Shown: positions 9,017 to 36,278 of the stretch, in pieces
Layout of the letters: the number at the start of each line of letters is the position of its first letter
How positions within the stretch are numbered: the first letter of the stretch is position 1
Assembly: GCA_003141795.1 (NCBI GenBank)
Contig: PLNO01000062.1
Coordinates: forward strand, 477-39,539
Origin: Spirochaetaceae bacterium
GTDB taxonomy: Bacteria; Spirochaetota; Spirochaetia; SZUA-6; Fen-1364
Length of the DNA: 39,063 nucleotides
Direction of reading: 5' to 3'
Program-made: the position numbers and the translations under genes
Notes under the pieces: generated by a model
The model's input: only the letters and a program-made list of their open reading frames with translations
What the model was told of the DNA's origin: nothing
Databases searched by the model: none

Positions 9017-9956
9017 GAACCCCTTCGCGGGCTGGCCGCACGTCCTGCTCGAGAGCCGGCACCTTCGCTGCGTGGTGATGCTTCCGGATCCGCTGCAGGG
9101 CTACTACAGGGGGCCGCGCTTCGATTGGTCGGGCACGGTGGCTTCCGTCCGAACGGAACGACACGGCTTTTTCGGTCCCTGGCGCGACCTTCCGCATCGC
9201 CCTCGGATGCACGACGACACGGCCGGGACGGCTGGAGAGTTCGGCATGGGTCCGCGCACCGGCAATCCGCCGCCCGTCGGCTATGAGGAGGCCGGCCGCG
9301 GCGAGCCTTTCCTGAAGATCGGCGTCGGACAGCTCGCCAGGATCGCAGAGCAGTCCTACGACTACGCCGCTCTGTACCGGATCAGCCGGCCCGCGGCATG
9401 GGACATCAGGCGTGACGAGAAGGGGATCAGCTTCACGCAGGAGGACGGTCCGGTGCGGGGCCACGCATTCCGCTATGTCAAAGGCATCACGCTTTCTCCG
9501 ACGGATGCCTCTCTCACCCTCAGCCACACGCTTTCGAACACAGGAACGCGTCAGCTCCGCCAGACCCACTACTGCCACAACTTCATCCGCATCGACGAAC
9601 GTGATGTCGGGCGGGACGTCTCTCTCGAGCTTCCCTTCGTGCCGGAGCTGTCACAGGTCCGGGGCAGCGCGCTCGTATCCGAGGGGCGGCGCGTCCGTCT
9701 GAGCCGGGACCCCGGGCCGACGGAAGAGTTTTTCGCGCTCGTGACCGGATTCGGTGACGGCGCGGGGGAGAACACGGTGCTCGTGCGTGCCCCCGGAGCG
9801 GCGCTCCGTATCAGCGGGGACTTGCCCCTTGTCCGATTTCAGGTGTGGGGGACGGGGAGGACGATCTGTCCCGAGCCGTTCGTCGCGCTCGACCTCCTGC
9901 CCGGAGAGGCCGTGACATGGGCGATCCGCTACGATTTCCTGGAGTCCGACGCCTAG
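9009..9956 (+). CDS. Galactose-mutarotase-fold protein, function unknown
   Basis: This 315-residue soluble protein has no signal peptide. The N-terminal pattern GYYRGPRFDWSGTV followed by HGFFGPW is typical of a family of aldose-epimerase-like (galactose mutarotase fold) conserved proteins. The remainder is beta-rich, with a histidine-containing THYCHNFIRID strand in the middle that could belong to the sugar site. Function is inferred from fold resemblance only; a carbohydrate-modifying or sugar-binding role is plausible. It overlaps ccsA by 8 bases and so is probably the third gene of that operon, although no link to cytochrome assembly is known. Its TAG stop shares a CTAG with the stop of the convergent gene. 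Confidence 0.6.
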   Translation: MDENPFAGWPHVLLESRHLRCVVMLPDPLQGYYRGPRFDWSGTVASVRTERHGFFGPWRDLPHRPRMHDDTAGTAGEFGMGPRTGNPPPVGYEEAGRGEPFLKIGVGQLARIAEQSYDYAALYRISRPAAWDIRRDEKGISFTQEDGPVRGHAFRYVKGITLSPTDASLTLSHTLSNTGTRQLRQTHYCHNFIRIDERDVGRDVSLELPFVPELSQVRGSALVSEGRRVRLSRDPGPTEEFFALVTGFGDGAGENTVLVRAPGAALRISGDLPLVRFQVWGTGRTICPEPFVALDLLPGEAVTWAIRYDFLESDA

Positions 9957-12598
9957 GACTGAAGCGCCGCGTGGAACCGCCTGTTCTCCAGAAGCGTGTG
10001 GTCGATCACCCAGTCCTTCAGGAACTCCACCATGGTGTGAAGCGCGGTGACCGGTGCCGTCTCCAGGTATTTCCCCAATCCTTCCACCTTGCGCACGAAC
10101 TCGCTGTGGTCCCGGACAGCCTCGTCATACGCCGGGGTGCGGTGCCGGCTGGCGAGGGTTTCCTCGTACTGGAGGTGTGACCGGGAGAGGGACAACAGCT
10201 TCTCCACCTTGTCCGTCATGCCGTCGGCGGAAGCCCTGCCGTCCGCCACAGCTCCGAGGCTGTCGATCATCTCGAAAAGCAGCCGGTGCTGCTCGTCTAT
10301 TTCCGGAATGCCGACGGTGTAGGAGTCGTGCCAGACGAACATCACCTCCGCCCTGAAGCTCTTCAGGCGGCGCTCATAGGTCTCCATGAGCTTCCATTGG
10401 ACGACGGGGATGTCCTCGATGGCCTCGGCGGGGATCGCGTACAGCACGGAGTCCAGGAGGGCCCGTGCCTGGAAGAGATTGTGGCCGGCGCTCTCCTCGG
10501 TGGAGGGCCGGGCAAAACGCTGCCGCCAGCCCGCGGGCAGCTCGCGCGCGCCGCGCATCATCGTCTCCTCCCCGAAGAACCCTCCCGGCTTCAGGTTCTC
10601 GATCGGACGCGAGCCGAGGAATACGGTGACCAGACCCTCGGAGACCACGCAGATCTCCGCCCGGCCCTGGGGCGCCATGACGTCGTCCTCGTGCACGAGG
10701 CGCCTCTGCATGGCGCCGGCGATCCTCATCTGCAGGGGGAATGACACCATCTCTCCGAAGAGCCAGGTCCCCTGGAGGATCCGTCGTTGCTCATTCACCC
10801 GCGCAAGTCCCTCCGCAAGACCGGCGCGCTTGAGGAACTCGAGATAGATGTCCCTGGTGATCCGCAGGACCGCCACCCGTCCGAGCGCCCGGCAGGTATG
10901 CCGGTAGGTGTCGGCGGAGAAGCAATCCAGTTCCCCGATCAAGGCGCCCGCGGATTCCCTGTTGTGCAGGCCTGTCTTGGAATCGATGAGCTCGACCTCA
11001 CCGCTCAGGATGAAGCAGACCTCGGTTGCAGGCGTTTCGGCGCGCTGGATGATCGTGTCGGGGGCGATGTTCGCCAGCGGGGCGTCGCCCAACATGTCGA
11101 TGTCGTGCTTTGCGGCGCCGGGGAAATAGGCGGCGAGCGCCCTCACGCCTTCGCGAAGGAGGTAATCCACGTGCGCGGCAACCAGGACGTCCTGCTGGCC
11201 GAAGGTGGCGCACGAGCCTATCTCCTTCTGCGCATCGGTGAGCGGTGTCGAGGTGTGGCTCAGGAGCACTTTGGCCGACCCGTCCCCGGCGAAATCCTCC
11301 GCCCGTCCGTGTATCAGGCCTCCGCCGATGTCGATCTTTTTGACGTTCACCGGCTCCTGGAACTTGCGCAGACACGCGTCGTAGAGCGCCGAGGATATGC
11401 CGTTGCGCGAGGGGTCCTCCGTGACCATCTTCTTCAGCACCTCGAAGGAGCTGATGTCCGCGAGGTGGGCGTAGGACCTGTGTCCCTTCTCCCAGAGCGC
11501 GCGGAAGAAGAACACGGTGGTTTCCACGGGATGCGGGGAGAGGAAAGGCATCACCTCCAGGCCGTCGACGTCGTTCCACTCCCCGAGGGTGAGGTCGTGC
11601 GGCTCGAAGTACTGGTAGAAGGTCGCCTCATTACGGCCCGTGAGCGCCGCGTACTTCTTCACGACGCTGGCCCTCACGGAGGGGGTGGCGTAGTAGGCGA
11701 TGCGATGATCGGAGCGCACGAGGGAGGTGAGACCGGCGAAGTGGTCGTCGTGCCCGTGGGTGTGGAAGATGCCCGCAACCTCGTTGATGCTGATGCCCAG
11801 GGCGGTGAGGGAGTGCTGGATGCCCGGTCCCGCGTCAATGAGGTAGAGCCTGCCCTGGAAGCACACCATGCTCCCCATGCAGGGCCGGGTGACGTCCCAT
11901 CCATCCCCCTCACCGATGTGCACGACGGAAAAGTACTCGCGGCGCAGCGACTGGAAACCCAGCTGGTATGTCGGGGCGTACTCCTCGGTGTCCCCGAGGT
12001 TGAGGTCGACGGTGACCGACTGGCCTCCGTAAATGAACTCGTAGCGGTTGAAGCCCCTGCGGCGCACGAACGCGCCGCCGCGCAGCTCCACGGCCGGCGT
12101 GTCGACGATGCGAAGGTCCATGAGGTCTTCCGTGCGGCGTATGTTGTCGAAGGCGAACCACCGCTTGATGCGCAGCATGTCCAAGGCGAGCTGCTCGGAC
12201 ACGCCGGAATCGATGATCTCCGCGAGGCTCGCCAGGCCGTAGGTCCCGCGGTAGATGTAGCTGCTCTGGCTTTTCACCTGGTCTTCAAGGCCGATGAGCA
12301 TCGGCTTCTGGCCGTTGTTGTTGGGGTGGTCCGGCAGGATCATGCCCTGCAGGTACAGCATCTGCAGCACGGGGAACTCCGCGAGGTTGGAAAAGCTCCC
12401 CTTCTGTATCATCGTGTCGGAGAGGAGGATGGCGTTCGGCCCCGTCTGGGCCATGACGCCGTTTTTCTCCCGCTCTACGATGAGGCCCGCCTTCATGAGG
12501 TGCTTGACGCTGTCCGCGGGGCAACCGCAGAGGACGAAGAGGTCTGCTTCGGGTATCTCCACCCAGTAGACACCGTTCGTCACACGCTGTTTCTGCAT
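9953..12598 (-). CDS. Four-module fusion: metallo-beta-lactamase fold, two cyclic-nucleotide-binding domains, C-terminal hemerythrin
   Basis: The protein has 881 residues. Residues 1-220 are an unrecognised domain with a CGC pair at 24-26. Residues 225-455 are a metallo-beta-lactamase fold with the metal motif HxHxDH at 281-286. Residues ~497-600 are a cyclic-nucleotide-binding fold (FILSGEVELID, IGEL). A second such fold at ~605-745 contains GGFFGEE. Residues 754-881 are a bacteriohemerythrin domain. In the hemerythrin the ligands H771, H808, E812, H831 and H867 are in register with known bacteriohemerythrins. The position of the fourth His is Ala827 and that of the bridging Asp is Asn872. 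RBS AGAGGA lies 6 bases upstream of the ATG. A soluble sensor or effector joining ligand-gated modules to an oxygen- or redox-related hydrolase fold is the likely role. The enzyme substrate is unknown. Confidence 0.85.
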   Translation of the reverse strand: MQKQRVTNGVYWVEIPEADLFVLCGCPADSVKHLMKAGLIVEREKNGVMAQTGPNAILLSDTMIQKGSFSNLAEFPVLQMLYLQGMILPDHPNNNGQKPMLIGLEDQVKSQSSYIYRGTYGLASLAEIIDSGVSEQLALDMLRIKRWFAFDNIRRTEDLMDLRIVDTPAVELRGGAFVRRRGFNRYEFIYGGQSVTVDLNLGDTEEYAPTYQLGFQSLRREYFSVVHIGEGDGWDVTRPCMGSMVCFQGRLYLIDAGPGIQHSLTALGISINEVAGIFHTHGHDDHFAGLTSLVRSDHRIAYYATPSVRASVVKKYAALTGRNEATFYQYFEPHDLTLGEWNDVDGLEVMPFLSPHPVETTVFFFRALWEKGHRSYAHLADISSFEVLKKMVTEDPSRNGISSALYDACLRKFQEPVNVKKIDIGGGLIHGRAEDFAGDGSAKVLLSHTSTPLTDAQKEIGSCATFGQQDVLVAAHVDYLLREGVRALAAYFPGAAKHDIDMLGDAPLANIAPDTIIQRAETPATEVCFILSGEVELIDSKTGLHNRESAGALIGELDCFSADTYRHTCRALGRVAVLRITRDIYLEFLKRAGLAEGLARVNEQRRILQGTWLFGEMVSFPLQMRIAGAMQRRLVHEDDVMAPQGRAEICVVSEGLVTVFLGSRPIENLKPGGFFGEETMMRGARELPAGWRQRFARPSTEESAGHNLFQARALLDSVLYAIPAEAIEDIPVVQWKLMETYERRLKSFRAEVMFVWHDSYTVGIPEIDEQHRLLFEMIDSLGAVADGRASADGMTDKVEKLLSLSRSHLQYEETLASRHRTPAYDEAVRDHSEFVRKVEGLGKYLETAPVTALHTMVEFLKDWVIDHTLLENRRFHAALQS

Positions 12599-15502: not shown

Positions 15503-16226
15503 CTCCCTGTTCGTCGTCGTTTTGGTCGGCTTTCTCTCGCTTCCCCTGTTCGCCCAGGGCGGGCGCGGCGGACGAGCTCCGGGCCGCGAGGTCGCCGTTC
15601 CGAAGGTCGAGGTGCGGGATTCCTTCTTCGCTTACGTGCTGGGGATCGTCAGGTCGGGGACCGACATCGACATCGACAACGAGGAGATGCGGGCGATCCT
15701 CACGGAGTTCAAGACGAGCCTCGACCTGCCCTTCGATCTCATCTCCCGCGTCACCCAGACCACCAGCCCCGAGAGCGGGCTTCGCACCATCGGGCTTGAT
15801 TTCCTGCGCGACGTGAATATCCCCATCCCGTTCTCCCTGCTCTTCTATCACCCGGGGAGCATCGTTTCGAGCCAGAGCCTCCTCTTCACCGTGAACCGCT
15901 CGGTTGCCGAGGATCCCTCCGAGCCGGGAATCCTCTCCCCCGTGTTCGATCTCAGGCTCAGCTCGGGATCCGTGCTCGTGAATATCGACGACTGGCTGGA
16001 GGCGCTTCTCTCAGCGTACATCGAGGACACGTGGGTCCATCACATCATCTTCTTCAAGTGGCAGGGCGACTGGATCGGCCTCCTCGAAGGGGAAGGGGTG
16101 CGAACGAGAAGAGACCTTCGGGCATATTTCGACTTCACGAAAAACGCGATCGTCTTTCCGGTTTCCACCGAGCTCGATGCGTTGGGCAAGGGGTTCATTC
16201 CCGTGCCTGCCTCGGCCGCTCGATAG
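15492..16226 (+). CDS. Secreted/periplasmic hypothetical protein with signal peptide
   Basis: A protein of 244 residues from GTG 15492, preceded by a G-rich RBS. Residues 1-21 are a clear signal peptide (basic VRRSS, a long hydrophobic core, then LFAQ). The mature part has no cysteine and looks like a mixed alpha/beta domain. I recognise no family. The frame continues 17 codons upstream, but only the GTG gives a signal peptide directly at the N-terminus. It overlaps the membrane-anchored nuclease gene by 11 bases and converges on the PduL fusion gene with only 3 bases between. Confidence 0.7.
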   Translation: MRRSSLFVVVLVGFLSLPLFAQGGRGGRAPGREVAVPKVEVRDSFFAYVLGIVRSGTDIDIDNEEMRAILTEFKTSLDLPFDLISRVTQTTSPESGLRTIGLDFLRDVNIPIPFSLLFYHPGSIVSSQSLLFTVNRSVAEDPSEPGILSPVFDLRLSSGSVLVNIDDWLEALLSAYIEDTWVHHIIFFKWQGDWIGLLEGEGVRTRRDLRAYFDFTKNAIVFPVSTELDALGKGFIPVPASAAR

Positions 16227-16229
16227 ATC

Positions 16230-17558
16230 CTATACCGTCATCATCGGGATCAGGATCTGACCCGTCGACACGGCGGGGATGCCGGCCGCGTTCGCCTCGT
16301 CCGTGTCGATGTGCATCTCCAGGGACGAGGCGGACCCCACGCGTACGATGACACTTTCGGCGATCGTCGCCCTGTCCCCCACGAGACGTACGCTGACGTG
16401 GGCCCCGTGCTTCACCCCGATGCGGTCCGCGTCCTGAGGGAGCATGTGGATGTGACGCATCGCCCTGATGACCCCGTGAGGAACGCTGATCTCTCCGGCG
16501 GGCCCGGCGATCGTGATGCCCGGAGTCCCGTCGATGCTTCCCGATTCCCGGACCGGCGCCTGCACGCCGAGGGTGAACTGGTCGGTGCCGGAGATCTCCA
16601 CCTGGACATTGCCGCGCAGCGGCCCGATGATCCGCACCTTCTCGATCCTGCCCTTGGGTCCGATGATGTCCACCGTCTCCGTTGCCGCAAACTGCCCGGG
16701 CTGGGTGAGCTCCTCCAGGGGCGTGAGGATCGCGCCCCGGCCGAAGAGCTTTTCCATGGCCGCGGCCGTGAGGTGCACGTGCCGGGTGGACACGCGCACG
16801 GAGACCTCCACGATCCGTCCCTCGGCTTCCTGGCCGGTGAGGATCTTGTCGGAGAAGCGCGACCAGCAGGAAGCCTTCGGGTTGTTGCGCACTTGCAGGA
16901 GCGCGGCCCTCACCTGTTCGGCGGCCAGCACGCCGTATTCCTGGCTGAAGCGGCGGTAGAAATCGAGGATCCTCCCATGATCGCTCACGTAGCGGGCGGG
17001 CATCGCATTGAGGGCAAGGGCGAACACATTGCTCCAGCACTGGCTGCAGCGGCACAATCCGTCGGCGTGGATGGCGACGCTCGTTTCCTCGCCGACGATG
17101 AGCTCCATGATGTTGTAGGGAGCGAAGCTGGACCCGGAAATTTTCCGCATGACGTTCGCCGAGAGGATCGTGGAGAGGACCGAGGCGGTACGCAGCCTTT
17201 CCGGGGAGCACAGGCCGAGGGCCGCAAGGGCCTCTTCGACTGACTCCGACGATCGGGCGCAGCGACGCCGCGCCTCCTCGAGCTGGGCAGGGCTTATCCA
17301 TCCGAGGCTCTCCAGGATCTGGCCGGAGTCGGTGCGATCGATCACCGCCAGTGCCTGGCTCTTCAGCGCCGTGGTCACCTGATCGGCGTCCACCCACCCC
17401 TTGCGGACGGCGATCTCCCCGAGGCGCGAGTGCACGCCTACCGCGGCGATGTCGCGCTGTTCGTCGAGCAGCATGCCCACCTGCTCTTTGCGAAGCGCAT
17501 CGGCTTTTACCAGGAGGTCACCCAAACGTGGCACGGAGTGTTCGTTCTGCACGCTCAT
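16230..17558 (-). CDS. PduL-type phosphotransacylase fused to ComFB-like and GspE-N-like helical modules
   Basis: A protein of 442 residues from ATG 17558. Residues ~252-430 are a complete phosphate propanoyltransferase (PduL) with the metal motifs RHVHL (His260, His262) and RHIHM (His369, His371), plus LEMHIDTDEAN (His416). Also present are GPLR, QVEISGTD and APVRESG. This class interconverts acyl-CoA and acyl-phosphate. Residues ~134-232 resemble ComFB, including the CRCSQCW cysteine cluster (C169, C171, C174) and FALALNAMPARYV. Residues 11-126 hold four helical repeats of the type LG-x-(I/L)L-x3-G-x(I/V)-x3-Q(L/V), as in the N-termini of GspE/PilB ATPases. PduL enzymes are normally ~200-240 residues without such extensions. 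The frame is open 320 codons further upstream across the divergent nitrilase gene; that part is antisense shadow. No microcompartment shell gene is seen. Confidence 0.85.
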   Translation of the reverse strand: MSVQNEHSVPRLGDLLVKADALRKEQVGMLLDEQRDIAAVGVHSRLGEIAVRKGWVDADQVTTALKSQALAVIDRTDSGQILESLGWISPAQLEEARRRCARSSESVEEALAALGLCSPERLRTASVLSTILSANVMRKISGSSFAPYNIMELIVGEETSVAIHADGLCRCSQCWSNVFALALNAMPARYVSDHGRILDFYRRFSQEYGVLAAEQVRAALLQVRNNPKASCWSRFSDKILTGQEAEGRIVEVSVRVSTRHVHLTAAAMEKLFGRGAILTPLEELTQPGQFAATETVDIIGPKGRIEKVRIIGPLRGNVQVEISGTDQFTLGVQAPVRESGSIDGTPGITIAGPAGEISVPHGVIRAMRHIHMLPQDADRIGVKHGAHVSVRLVGDRATIAESVIVRVGSASSLEMHIDTDEANAAGIPAVSTGQILIPMMTV

Positions 17559-17720: not shown

Positions 17721-18509
17721 ATGCCAGTGAAAACGGTGATTGCCTGCGGGCAGTTCAGCCCGGAAATCGGGGACGTCAGAGGCAACGTGCGGACGATGAG
17801 CATCCAGGCGCGCGACGCGGCGCATCGGGGTGCGCGGGTGCTCGTGTTTCCCGAGCTCTGCCTCTCGGGCTACCCGACCGCGGAGACCGCGGCCTTCCTG
17901 GCCGTCACCCGCGATGGACCCGAGCTGGGCAGGGTGGCCGATTGCGCACGGGCCGCGGGGATCGCGCTGTGCTTCGGCTTCGTCGAGCGTTCGCCCGAAG
18001 GCGTCCTGTACAACAGCCTCGGTCTCATGAGAGCGACCGGGGAGCTCATGGCCGTGTACCGCAAGGTCCACCTCTGGGACACGGAAAAATCCTGGGCCGC
18101 ACCGGGCAACGGCTTTTTCTGCGTTGCGATCGGCGAGATCCCGACAGGGCTGTGGATCTGCTACGACACGCGCTTCCCCGAGGCGGCGCGCAGCGTGGCG
18201 CTTCGCGGGGCGACCCTCGGATGTGCCGGCTCCGCGTGGTTCGGCCCCGCCGAGGAGTGGGAGCTCGCGCTGCGCGCGCGCGCGATGGACAACGGGATAT
18301 ACTGTGCCGGGGCCGCGATGCAGGGGGCGGTCGGCTCCCAGGCGCTGCACGGGGTGAGCCTCATCGTCGATCCCCACGGTACGGTGATCGCCCGCGCGCG
18401 TGCCGGCACGGACGAGGTCATCTCCGCCGACTACGATAGCGATGCCGTGGATGCTTTTCGCGCACGGCTGCCGCTGCTCTCCCACCTTCGGCCCGAGAGC
18501 TATGCGTAA
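17721..18509 (+). CDS. Carbon-nitrogen hydrolase (nitrilase superfamily)
   Basis: A protein of 262 residues with the whole nitrilase catalytic set: Glu in ARVLVFPELCLSGYP, Lys in YRKVHLW and Cys in LWICYDTRFPE. It is a cytoplasmic amidase or deaminated-metabolite repair-type enzyme hydrolysing a C-N bond; the exact substrate (omega-amidase, carbamoylase or other) cannot be read from the sequence. The start at ATG 17721 agrees with the family N-terminus (VIACGQFSPEIGD). The open frame upstream of it lies in the hairpin region and inside the opposite gene and is not coding. It overlaps the next gene by 8 bases. Confidence 0.85.
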   Translation: MPVKTVIACGQFSPEIGDVRGNVRTMSIQARDAAHRGARVLVFPELCLSGYPTAETAAFLAVTRDGPELGRVADCARAAGIALCFGFVERSPEGVLYNSLGLMRATGELMAVYRKVHLWDTEKSWAAPGNGFFCVAIGEIPTGLWICYDTRFPEAARSVALRGATLGCAGSAWFGPAEEWELALRARAMDNGIYCAGAAMQGAVGSQALHGVSLIVDPHGTVIARARAGTDEVISADYDSDAVDAFRARLPLLSHLRPESYA

Positions 18510-19301: not shown

Positions 19302-19580
19302 GTGACGCTACAACATGTTGAGGGAACAGACAAAGGGCGGATCGTTTTATACGCCCTCAGCACCTGCATGTGGTGCCGGATGGCAAAGACTCTGTTGAAG
19401 GACCTCGGAGTGGGCTACGAATACATCGACGTCGACACCCTCCCCGCGGAGGAGAAGGACGCCGTGAAAAAGGAAATCAAACGCTGGAACCCCGACGGCT
19501 CGTATCCCACCATCGTGATCAATGACAAAGAAAGCGTTTCCGGTTTCGACGAGACGGAGATCAGGGAGAAGATCAAGTGA
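19302..19580 (+). CDS. Glutaredoxin-like thiol-redox protein
   Basis: A 92-residue thioredoxin-fold protein with the redox pair C22-M-W-C25 after a short beta strand (IVLYALSTC), the cis-Pro segment SYPTIVIND and a C-terminal G-F-D motif (VSGFDETEI). GTG start with a good RBS. Its partner is encoded immediately downstream: the FTR-beta-like protein starts with GTG at 19577, inside the last codons. The pairing of a glutaredoxin-like protein with an FTR-beta-like reductase suggests that reduced ferredoxin or rubredoxin electrons reach this dithiol protein. Glutathione dependence is not implied. Confidence 0.85.
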   Translation: MTLQHVEGTDKGRIVLYALSTCMWCRMAKTLLKDLGVGYEYIDVDTLPAEEKDAVKKEIKRWNPDGSYPTIVINDKESVSGFDETEIREKIK

Positions 19581-20134
19581 GCGGCTCCGAGCAGACGCCG
19601 GAAGTGACAAGGGAAGAGGTGGAACGCCTCTTCAAGAAGCTGGACCGCGAGGCTGAGAGCGCGGGCTACCACCTGAACCCCGACCGCGAGTTCACCCTCG
19701 GTCTGATCGAGGGGATGCTCGTCAATGAAAAACGCTACGGCTACTGGGCATGCCCCTGCCGGCTCGCCTCCGGGGTCAAAAAAGAAGATCTCGATATCAT
19801 CTGTCCCTGCGACTACCGGGACCCGGACATCGCGCAGTACGGCACCTGCTACTGCGGTCTGTACGTGTCCCAGGATATCGTGGACGGCAAGAAGAAGCCG
19901 ACCCGCATCCCCGAGCGTCGGCCGGCGGAGCCGGGCATCGCGCCCGCGCAGCGCATGAGCGATACGCGGGCCGCGGCGGGCTCAAAGGCCACGCCGGATC
20001 TCCCCGACCTCTCGGGGCTTCGCTATCCGCTATGGCGGTGCAGGGTATGCGGGTACCTCTGCGCCCGCGACGAGCCGCCCGAGGTGTGCCCGATTTGCCG
20101 GGCTAAAAAGGACCGGTTCGAGAGGTTCCTCTGA
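19577..20134 (+). CDS. Ferredoxin:thioredoxin reductase beta-type protein fused to a rubredoxin-like domain
   Basis: A protein of 185 residues. Residues ~10-100 are the FTR catalytic-chain fold with cysteines at 59/61 (CPC), 76/78 (CPC) and 91/93 (CYC), which together carry a [4Fe-4S] cluster and the redox disulfide. A 50-residue Pro/Ala-rich linker leads to a rubredoxin-like knuckle domain, C155-x2-C158 and C171-x2-C174, within WRCRVCGYLC and EVCPICRAK. The protein probably reduces the adjacent glutaredoxin-like protein, with the rubredoxin-like part as electron entry. GTG overlaps the upstream stop (GTGA). The MFS gene follows after 9 bases. Confidence 0.88.
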   Translation: MSGSEQTPEVTREEVERLFKKLDREAESAGYHLNPDREFTLGLIEGMLVNEKRYGYWACPCRLASGVKKEDLDIICPCDYRDPDIAQYGTCYCGLYVSQDIVDGKKKPTRIPERRPAEPGIAPAQRMSDTRAAAGSKATPDLPDLSGLRYPLWRCRVCGYLCARDEPPEVCPICRAKKDRFERFL

Positions 20135-32835: not shown

Positions 32836-32864
32836 AGTTCACTATAGAGCGCTTGGAGCGCCAG

Positions 32865-33635
32865 ATGCCCACGAAAAAACGACAGGACAGAATCGGAAAG
32901 ATCCTGGAAACCCTCCAATCAACCCAGGGCGCAACCATCAGGGAGCTTTCGGAGTCACTCGGGGTATCTGAGATGACTGTGCGTCGGGATCTGGAGACGC
33001 TCTCCTCCGACCATAAGGTGAAGCTCGTGCATGCCGGGGCGATCCCCTTCGGGATGGGGCGCGGGGCCTATTCCCTCGTCGAGCCTGGCGGTTCAGCGGC
33101 GGCTGAGAAGATGCGCATCGGCATGAAGGCCGCATCGCTCATCGAGGCGGGAGACGTCGTGATCGTCGACTCGGGGTCGACCACCGAGTGGCTCGCCCGC
33201 AGCATCCCCGCCGACATTCCCGTGACGATCCTCTGCTTCGCTCTGAACATCATGCTGGAGGCGGGCAGGGACAAGGCGCGCACCATAGTGCTGGCAGGCG
33301 GCGTGCTGCACGGGGAAACCCTCGTCTTCGAGAGCCCCGAAGGGATCAGCGTCATCAAGCGCCACCGTGCAAATAAGGCGTTCCTCACCGCTGGAGGGGT
33401 GAGCGCGAAGCTCGGGGTCACGTGCGTCGGCTCCGCCGAGGCCGAGCTGAAGAAGGCCGCCATCGCCTCTTCGAGCACACGGATCCTCCTTGCCGACTCC
33501 CGGAAGTTCGGTACGGTGAAGCCGTCGTGGTTTGCCGACCTCGTCGACTTCGACGCCGTCGTCACCGATGCCGGCATCTCCCTCGACTACGTCGAGATCC
33601 TTCGGGAGCTGGGCATCGCCCTGCACGTGGTCTGA
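32865..33635 (+). CDS. DeoR/GlpR-family transcriptional regulator
   Basis: A protein of 256 residues. The helix-turn-helix is at residues ~6-58 (IRELSESLGVSEMTVRRDLETL). The DeoRC domain has VIVDSGSTTEWLA, a VLAGGVLHGETLV segment, FLTAGGVS and late LADSRKFG. It is expected to sense a phosphorylated sugar. It is preceded by AT-rich DNA with two dyads, one across its own -35. The stop TGA overlaps an ATG (TGATG) that began a second gene, now a remnant, so it was once the first gene of an operon. Confidence 0.88.
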   Translation: MPTKKRQDRIGKILETLQSTQGATIRELSESLGVSEMTVRRDLETLSSDHKVKLVHAGAIPFGMGRGAYSLVEPGGSAAAEKMRIGMKAASLIEAGDVVIVDSGSTTEWLARSIPADIPVTILCFALNIMLEAGRDKARTIVLAGGVLHGETLVFESPEGISVIKRHRANKAFLTAGGVSAKLGVTCVGSAEAELKKAAIASSSTRILLADSRKFGTVKPSWFADLVDFDAVVTDAGISLDYVEILRELGIALHVV

Positions 33636-35004: not shown

Positions 35005-35427
35005 CTACGACGGTGTTTGCCCGTGCTTCCGTGCGGGCTCGGAGAGGATCGCGTGAACCCGTGCTTTCAGCTCCTCACCGTCGAACGGTTTGGGAAGGAA
35101 CTCGAGGCCGAGATTCGTGCGCACGATCCCGCTGACTTCTCCACCGCTCATCACGATGGACTTGATTCCCGGCCGCTCCTCGATCAGCCTCGTGCAGAGC
35201 TCGATTCCATTCAAGCGGGGCATCGATACGTCCGTGATGACAAGATCGATGATTCCAGAGTATGAGCGTGAAAGCTGGAGACCTTCCATGCCGTCGGACG
35301 CCGAAAGCGCGTAATACCCCTCACCCTGCATCAGCATGGTCACCAGATTGCGGATGAGGACCTCATCATCGACGACGAGAACGACGGGGTGGCGGGTTGC
35401 CCCGTCTTCTCCACTTTGACGCTCCAT
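35005..35427 (-). CDS. Single-domain response regulator (CheY-like receiver)
   Basis: A protein of 140 residues from ATG 35427. The receiver fold carries the acidic pair in VVLVVDDE, the phosphorylated Asp in DLVITDVSMPRLNG, Ser in SIVMSGG and Lys in LPKPFDG. There is no output domain, so it acts through protein contacts or as a phosphorelay intermediate. No histidine kinase gene is in the window. The frame is open 13 codons further upstream from a GTG at 35466. An extended -10 (TGG-TATAAA, 35479-35471) favours a short leader and ATG 35427. Confidence 0.88.
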   Translation of the reverse strand: MERQSGEDGATRHPVVLVVDDEVLIRNLVTMLMQGEGYYALSASDGMEGLQLSRSYSGIIDLVITDVSMPRLNGIELCTRLIEERPGIKSIVMSGGEVSGIVRTNLGLEFLPKPFDGEELKARVHAILSEPARKHGQTPS

Positions 35428-35470
35428 GGTAGAAGCTTCGTTACTTGCTGAATTCAATGGGCGCACTATT

Positions 35471-35564: not shown

Positions 35565-35593
35565 TTGCAGAAAATCCCGGATCGTGACAAAAT
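35565..35593 (+). promoter_or_regulatory. Promoter of the Crp/Fnr-type regulator
   Basis: TTGCAG (35565-35570), a 17-base spacer and CAAAAT (35588-35593). An AAGGG RBS lies a few bases before ATG 35616. Confidence 0.45.
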
Positions 35594-35615
35594 TTCGGGG
35601 GGAACAAGGGCGGAC

Positions 35616-36278
35616 ATGCGTTCGAAAAAATTAAAAGGTGCATTCGATCCGGACCATTTCCTGACAAAGGCGAATGGCGGGAAAACCGTCGTCAAGCAGC
35701 GCGCCAAGGACAGGATATTCGATCAGGGGGATCCGGCGGACGAGATCTACTACGTCCAGTCCGGCAAGGTGAAGCTGACAGTCGTCTCCCGGCAGGGGAA
35801 AGAGGCGGTCATTGCCATCCTTTCCCCGGGGGAGTTTTTCGGCGAGGGATGCCTGGTGGCAGGGCAGACCGTGCGAATGGCCACCGCCACCGCGCTGACC
35901 GATTGCACGCTCATGAGGATGTCGAAGAGCGAAACGATGCGGGTGCTCCGCGATGAGCCGCGTTTCTCGGAGATGTTCGTCGCTCACCTGCTCTCCCGCA
36001 ACATCAAGATCGAAGAAGACCTGGTCGACCAGCTGTTCAACTCCAGTGAGAAGCGACTCGCGCGCGTGCTTCTCCTGCTGGCGAACTTCGGCAAGGAAGG
36101 CGAGCCCAAGCTCGTTATCCCGTCCATCAGCCAGGAGACCCTGGCTGAGATCGTCGGCACGACGCGATCACGGGTCAATTTCTTCATGAACCGCTTCCGC
36201 AAGCTCGGATTCGTGGATTACAGCGGTGGATCCCTTGAGGTGCACAGCTCGCTGCTGACAGTCGTGATCAGCGAGTGA
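35616..36278 (+). CDS. Crp/Fnr-family transcriptional regulator
   Basis: A protein of 220 residues. The cyclic-nucleotide-binding fold occupies residues ~20-130 (RIFDQGDPADEIYYVQSGKVKLT, then LSPGEFFGEGCLV). A winged helix follows at ~150-220 with the recognition helix in ISQETLAEIVGTTRSRVNFFMNRF. No Fnr-type cysteine cluster is present, so it is more likely cAMP-like or allosteric than an oxygen-sensing iron-sulfur regulator. Divergent from the response regulator. The frame is open 17 codons further upstream, but the RBS and promoter support ATG 35616. Confidence 0.88.
   Translation: MRSKKLKGAFDPDHFLTKANGGKTVVKQRAKDRIFDQGDPADEIYYVQSGKVKLTVVSRQGKEAVIAILSPGEFFGEGCLVAGQTVRMATATALTDCTLMRMSKSETMRVLRDEPRFSEMFVAHLLSRNIKIEEDLVDQLFNSSEKRLARVLLLLANFGKEGEPKLVIPSISQETLAEIVGTTRSRVNFFMNRFRKLGFVDYSGGSLEVHSSLLTVVISE

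What the first reader, a model, noticed from the sequence alone, without database searches (positions are those of the whole stretch)
16230..17558. PduL phosphotransacylase fused to a ComFB-like domain and GspE-N-like helical repeats
A complete PduL catalytic region (His260/262, His369/371, His416) is preceded by a domain with the ComFB cysteine cluster CRCSQCW (C169, C171, C174) and FALALN motif, and by four helical LG-x-L repeats. PduL enzymes normally work alone or in microcompartments, and no shell genes are visible. ComFB-type domains have been described as cyclic-di-GMP receptors in other bacteria. That would make this a nucleotide-regulated acyl-phosphate enzyme, linking surface/motility signalling to acetate or propionate energy metabolism. 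The regulation is inference; the domain order is visible in the sequence.
Basis: partly seen in the sequence, partly recalled or inferred. Interest (0 to 1): 0.78.

Follow-up and report, generated by a model that had tools for sequence, protein, structure and literature searches.

The report
Probable signal-controlled acetyl-phosphate enzyme in spirochaetes
A spirochaete gene joins an enzyme that makes acetyl-phosphate to modules that resemble known sensors of a bacterial signalling molecule, so a lifestyle signal may switch part of the cell's energy metabolism, an untested but directly testable idea.

Summary
The fusion is real. ORF 16230-17558 (-), 442 aa, has a complete PduL phosphotransacylase at residues 249-437 (eight literature-named active-site residues, 99 of 99 aligned sequences) and a zinc-type ComFB domain at 142-234 (three cysteines 99/99, the fourth Cys or His 99/99). 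The N-terminal "helical repeats" are two MshEN-like (GspE-N) bundles. Unit 1 carries both halves of the published c-di-GMP motif: 10 of 12 contact residues identical, two Leu to Val, but a 10-residue instead of a 5-residue spacer. Unit 2 is degenerate. 118 of 120 listed relatives bear both Pfam labels.

The regulation idea is partly supported, with two corrections. The better c-di-GMP candidate is MshEN, not the cysteine ComFB: the solved c-di-GMP-binding relative (CdgR) lacks the cysteines. And although no shell gene was found in the window, 6 of 6 searched genomes with the fusion encode microcompartment shell proteins (38 of 296 in the phylum sample), and the fusion is their only PduL type. 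Best guess: a c-di-GMP-tuned CoA-recycling phosphotransacylase. Binding, activity and regulation are untested.

The parts
16230..17558 (-). whole fusion gene, 442 aa (two MshEN-like units, ComFB, PduL)
   Evidence: 442-aa counterparts in L001, L002, L003 and dN/dS at most 0.28 in every segment of the five pairs computed
17346..17540 (-). MshEN-like unit 1 (residues 7-71), candidate c-di-GMP site
17457..17528 (-). 24-residue motif I (residues 11-34), RLG...V...L..Q
   Evidence: motif from PMC5013675; Asp at the Gly position
17355..17426 (-). 24-residue motif II (residues 45-68), RLG...V...L..Q
   Evidence: motif from PMC5013675
17166..17333 (-). MshEN-like unit 2 (residues 76-131), motif degenerate
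16857..17135 (-). ComFB domain (residues 142-234)
17037..17054 (-). zinc-site cysteines C169, C171, C174
   Evidence: 99/99 in A2; aligned with C25/C27/C30 of B. subtilis ComFB
16866..16868 (-). fourth zinc ligand C231
   Evidence: 96 Cys + 3 His of 99; aligned with C88 of B. subtilis ComFB
16248..16814 (-). PduL phosphotransacylase (residues 249-437)

Best explanation
A cytosolic PduL-type phosphotransacylase (acyl-CoA + phosphate to acyl-phosphate + CoA) whose activity is set by c-di-GMP bound to the first N-terminal MshEN-like unit. The second unit and the zinc-bound ComFB domain form the dimerising hub that passes the conformational change to PduL. In spirochaetes with a microcompartment of the sugar-phosphate-utilizing (SPU) type whose locus lacks a phosphotransacylase, it probably recycles CoA downstream of the aldehyde dehydrogenase and feeds acetyl-phosphate to acetate kinase (ATP), so a lifestyle signal gates this branch. 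Shown by sequence or fold: domain order, intact active site, intact zinc site, MshEN contact residues, conservation, and co-occurrence with shell, AckA and GGDEF genes in relatives. Inferred: ligand, dimerisation, direction of regulation, acetyl substrate, cytosolic location, link to the compartment.
Confidence: 0.45

Rival explanations
1. One reading: the ComFB domain itself binds a cyclic dinucleotide (c-di-GMP or c-di-AMP) and regulates PduL; the MshEN-like units are structural.
Against: CdgR aligns without the cysteine cluster, so the solved c-di-GMP receptor differs from this zinc branch. The B. subtilis ComFB passages I read report zinc and no nucleotide. CdgR's ligand-contact residues were not in the passages read, so their conservation here is untested.
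Confidence: 0.2
2. The N-terminal modules are a dimerisation and localisation scaffold without a nucleotide ligand, for example docking PduL to a shell, pilus or partner; regulation is absent.
For: B. subtilis ComFB is an obligate zinc dimer (PMC4381287), and N149, E152, N184, Y190 of its interface are conserved at 98, 83, 98 and 99 of 99. Only unit 1 keeps the motif, and contact residues drift in part of the family.
Against: Motif positions G13, G47, Q34, Q68 are kept in 91 to 99 of 99, and G47-E48 is invariant, which I judge to be more than a plain helical spacer needs.
Confidence: 0.28
3. An ordinary PduL whose N-terminal part is a start-site artefact; the true protein starts inside.
For: One database copy of this very protein starts at residue 29 (P0002); no clear ribosome-binding site was seen by eye upstream.
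Against: dN/dS at most 0.28 in residues 1-71 and 72-135 in five pairs of close relatives. The N-terminal part aligns in 99 sequences, which I chose mostly as full length. 118 of 120 listed relatives bear both domain labels.
Confidence: 0.03

Closest known systems
PduL phosphotransacylase (PF06130; R. palustris PduL, 5cuo)
   Same: fold, zinc ligands, Arg and Ser phosphate contacts, gapless alignment
   Different: 248 extra N-terminal residues with signalling-type modules; queries for shell and SPU enzymes find nothing in the window (E 0.01) or in seven fusion-bearing loci (E 1e-4), apart from DeoR regulators in the window
AckA-PduL fusions
   Same: PduL as one domain of a multidomain protein; described in PMC4784909 (passages) and seen here in L018, L039, L063, L078 (AckA part recognised by eye)
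   Different: partner is acetate kinase, not sensor-like modules
MshEN / GspE-N c-di-GMP receptor (VcMshE 5htl, PilF GSPII)
   Same: four-helix bundle, paired RLG...Q motifs
   Different: 10-residue spacer, no Pfam PF05157 match, output is a metabolic enzyme rather than an ATPase or the signalling domains named in the section read
B. subtilis ComFB (4wai)
   Same: Zn Cys4 site and most dimer-interface residues
   Different: embedded between MshEN-like units and PduL rather than a separate protein
Cyanobacterial CdgR/ComFB c-di-NMP receptor (8hja)
   Different: lacks the cysteine cluster

Membership tests
PduL (PF06130) | score over Pfam cut-off | tested here: met
   239 bits against 25
PduL (PF06130) | zinc ligands and phosphate-site residues | tested here: met
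   eight of eight, in 99/99 aligned sequences
PduL (PF06130) | two-barrel fold | tested here: met
PduL (PF06130) | phosphotransacylase activity | not testable with these tools
   bench assay needed
ComFB (PF10719) | score over Pfam cut-off | tested here: met
   43.9 bits against 25
ComFB (PF10719) | zinc site of three clustered Cys plus a distant Cys/His | tested here: met
   99/99 for each of the three, 96 Cys + 3 His for the fourth; published rule
ComFB (PF10719) | dimer-interface residues N4, E7, D33, N40, Y46 | tested here: met
   N149, E152, N184, Y190 match; D33 is N177 here (Asn 90, Asp 5 of 99), so four of five identical in P0001
CdgR-type c-di-NMP receptor | ligand-contact residues and binding | not tested
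   contact residues not in the passages read; only fold and alignment without Cys
MshEN c-di-GMP receptor | 12 contact residues of two RLG...L...L..Q motifs | tested here: met
   10 identical, V27 and V61 conservative, in P0001; 28/99 sequences keep all 12 under allowed letters
MshEN c-di-GMP receptor | published relaxed 24-residue pattern, twice | tested here: not met
   P0001 matches once (position 45); motif I fails at the Gly position
MshEN c-di-GMP receptor | 5-residue spacer between motifs | tested here: not met
   10 residues in 99/99; PilB 5zfr shows 7 in the alignment
MshEN c-di-GMP receptor | Pfam PF05157 match | tested here: not met
   none for P0001 at E 1 or for 42 members at E 0.1; hence called MshEN-like
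MshEN c-di-GMP receptor | profile and fold relation | tested here: met
MshEN c-di-GMP receptor | c-di-GMP binding | not testable with these tools
   ITC/DRaCALA needed
SPU-type microcompartment | shell genes with DeoC-like aldolase, AldDH, RpiB and TIM in relatives | tested here: inconclusive
   shell in 6/6; G041 has DeoC, AldDH, TIM, shell; G063 has RpiB, AldDH, DeoR on the shell contig; G001 has RpiB, EutN, shell; the shell loci of G002, G005 and G056 were not scanned for these enzymes
SPU-type microcompartment | present in the window's own genome | not testable with these tools
   own genome not held; none found in the window itself

The most novel reading that the evidence does not exclude
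These spirochaetes run an SPU-type microcompartment whose missing phosphotransacylase is supplied by a separate PduL under second-messenger control, with the MshEN-like unit reading c-di-GMP and the zinc-ComFB hub reading a second input (zinc/redox or another cyclic dinucleotide). As far as I know this would be the first signal-gated CoA-recycling step of a metabolosome, and a direct route from c-di-GMP to the acetyl-phosphate pool.
Probability: 0.25. Interest if true: 0.85.

Novelty: new variant of a known kind. Interest (0 to 1): 0.6.

Why it matters
PMC4207490 notes that metabolosome loci with an aldehyde dehydrogenase but no phosphotransacylase regenerate or acquire cofactors in unknown ways (passages). 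In six shell-bearing genomes the only PduL-type enzyme lies away from the shell genes and carries modules resembling known c-di-GMP receptors; an aldehyde dehydrogenase beside the shell genes was confirmed in two of them. If c-di-GMP sets its rate, a lifestyle signal would directly control acetate formation and the acetyl-phosphate pool, and one purified protein is enough to test it. None of my ten paper searches turned up this architecture; the library lacks most subscription journals and bioRxiv.

Tried and rejected
Operon logic: close kin L001 and L003 share many neighbours with the window (synteny; the printed output was cut). Distant loci L104 and L105 share, among what I saw, a divergent gene (HAMP and cyclase domains in L104; 69% identical in L105), its neighbour and a DUF2099 protein (68% identical). 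No functional operon partner emerged.

Fusion as sole phosphotransacylase: rejected, because PF01515 hits occur in 6/6 genomes.

ComFB-PduL fusion in Firmicutes: some tblastn matches ran upstream of PduL (e.g. L050, L080, L004). My frame extension from the match start gave short frames without PduL for these, so the question stays open there.

N-terminal half with other outputs: 61 hits, 58 with PF06130; the three without are P0073 (named partial), P0122 (299 aa, not examined) and P0123 (248 aa, 957-base contig). No other output domain was listed. Only proteins of about 243-773 aa were candidates and 7995 were scored.

Rows left out: alignment A2 holds P0001 and 98 of the 120 listed relatives; I left out 22 (P0002, near-duplicates and short proteins), among them P0074, whose PduL end is disrupted, and P0072 and P0073, each with one domain label. 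The 42 members of A1 were P0001 and rows already bearing both labels, so 42/42 for both domains is partly circular.

Weak points: A3 held one mis-registered row (L107), left in. In one search the template was seven ATPase ORFs, of which four carried the N-terminal domain; L131 dropped out. Foldseek alone gave E <= 0.001 only for PduL. L125:9039-10040 looks like an aldehyde dehydrogenase start by eye but has no Pfam match. One further single match to the contact pattern lies in another frame of the window. NCBIfam was not searched: both tries failed on my coordinates.

Full report
What is there. ORF 16230-17558 on the minus strand encodes 442 aa. It converges with a + strand ORF ending at 16226 and diverges from a carbon-nitrogen hydrolase gene (I place its start near 17721 by eye). 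The longer open frame up to 18518 overlaps that gene and is not supported: L001, L002 and L003 have 442-aa counterparts starting at the same place.

ComFB. PF10719 matches at 43.9 bits against a cut-off of 25. The B. subtilis protein binds zinc by C25, C27, C30 and C88 and is an obligate dimer (PMC4381287, passages). The equivalents here are C169, C171, C174 (99/99 each) and C231 (96 Cys, 3 His), which fits the published Cys-or-His rule for the fourth ligand. Cyanobacterial ComFB/CdgR binds c-di-AMP and c-di-GMP (PMC12313861, parts 1 and 2 of 3 read), but the solved CdgR aligns without the cysteines. So the cysteine motif points to the zinc branch, not to the solved receptor branch.

Distribution. 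The protein search gave 1491 relatives at E <= 0.001 among 7996 scored candidates; 120 were listed, 118 of them with both Pfam labels, and the two source names that give a taxon say Spirochaetia. The unlisted rest was not seen and probably includes plain PduL. In 296 genomes of the phylum of G001, five carry the full fusion (G001 twice); G002 was reached separately. G001 and G002 are the genomes of records titled Spirochaetaceae; the others are unnamed. The N-terminal half was found with PF06130 in 58 of 61 hits. dN/dS is at most 0.28 in each of four segments for five of the six possible pairs among window, L001, L002 and L003; for pairs with L104, dS was mostly saturated or not computable.

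Cell context. In the six fusion genomes: PF00871 6/6 (partial in G001), PF01515 6/6, GGDEF 6/6, PF06130 only as the fusion 6/6, DAC 6/6, PF05157 MshEN 6/6 at E 0.01 and 5/6 over the cut-off, shell protein PF00936 6/6. In the sample 38 of 296 have shell proteins, including 5 of 5 with the fusion, hypergeometric P 2.7e-5. This ignores kinship, and G001 was the chosen centre. By my count, 20 of 30 sampled genomes with other strong PduL matches also have shell proteins, and 13 of 38 shell genomes show no PduL match; one search scored at most five candidates per genome. Enzymes beside the shell genes: DeoC, aldehyde dehydrogenase, TIM and RnfC/PduS-like in G041, RpiB and aldehyde dehydrogenase in G063, RpiB in G001. 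This fits the SPU type of PMC4207490 (passages); the shell loci of G002, G005 and G056 were not scanned for these enzymes. No PF06130 or PF01515 hit lies on the shell contigs of G001, G002, G041, G056 or G063, but these contigs are short (3.8-17 kb). In G005, on one long contig, they lie far apart. The window itself has no match to shell, EutN, aldehyde dehydrogenase, DeoC, RpiB or PduS-like queries at E 0.01; only its two DeoR-type regulators match the regulator on the G063 shell contig (46% and 30% identity).

Mechanism. I propose that c-di-GMP binds unit 1, that the zinc-ComFB dimer couples it to PduL, and that the enzyme recycles CoA to give acetyl-phosphate for acetate kinase. Domain anatomy and context are shown; ligand, coupling, direction of control and substrate are inferred.

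Literature. PduL with ComFB gave 0 papers; PduL with c-di-GMP gave 1, a C. perfringens expression paper (listing only); ComFB with c-di-GMP gave 2; phosphotransacetylase, c-di-GMP and allosteric gave 8 (listing only); the combined search listed 15 of 23 papers, none with MshEN and one with ComFB, on B. subtilis competence (listing only). Passages were also read in PMC12943098, PMC13075795, PMC13001216 and PMC10519070. Nothing I saw describes this architecture. The library excludes bioRxiv and most subscription journals.

Verdict. A real, conserved new domain combination; a new variant of a known kind. The regulation idea is plausible, better grounded in the MshEN-like unit than in ComFB, and untested.

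Noticed in passing
L018, L039, L063, L078 (L039: 3207-5075): AckA-PduL fusion frames of 594-626 aa in Smithella, Planctomycetota, Steroidobacter and Chitinophagales records, AckA part recognised by eye; a kind already mentioned in PMC4784909.
   Followed up: partly
window 32853-33635 (+): DeoR-type regulator 46% identical to the regulator on the shell contig of G063 (L121), although no shell gene was found in the window.
   Followed up: partly
window 9953-12598 (-): 881-aa protein with metallo-beta-lactamase, two cyclic-nucleotide-binding stretches and a hemerythrin domain; 79% identical counterpart in L001.
   Followed up: no
window 19577-20134 (+): Ferredoxin-thioredoxin reductase beta-like domain joined to a rubredoxin-like domain.
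   Followed up: no
L110-L115: Six proteins of about 240 aa from the same phylum with a ComFB-like N-terminus and a longer C-terminal part that I did not identify.
   Followed up: partly
L104 7094-9157, L105 10073-12100: HAMP-adenylate/guanylate cyclase gene (Pfam in L104) and its 69% identical counterpart, divergent from the distant fusion genes in two genomes.
   Followed up: partly
L001 6036-7364 and L002 1580-2908: Two fusion paralogues, 88% identical, in one metagenome-assembled genome.
   Followed up: partly
window 35005-35466 (-) and 35565-36278 (+): A single-domain response regulator next to a divergent CRP-type regulator.
   Followed up: no
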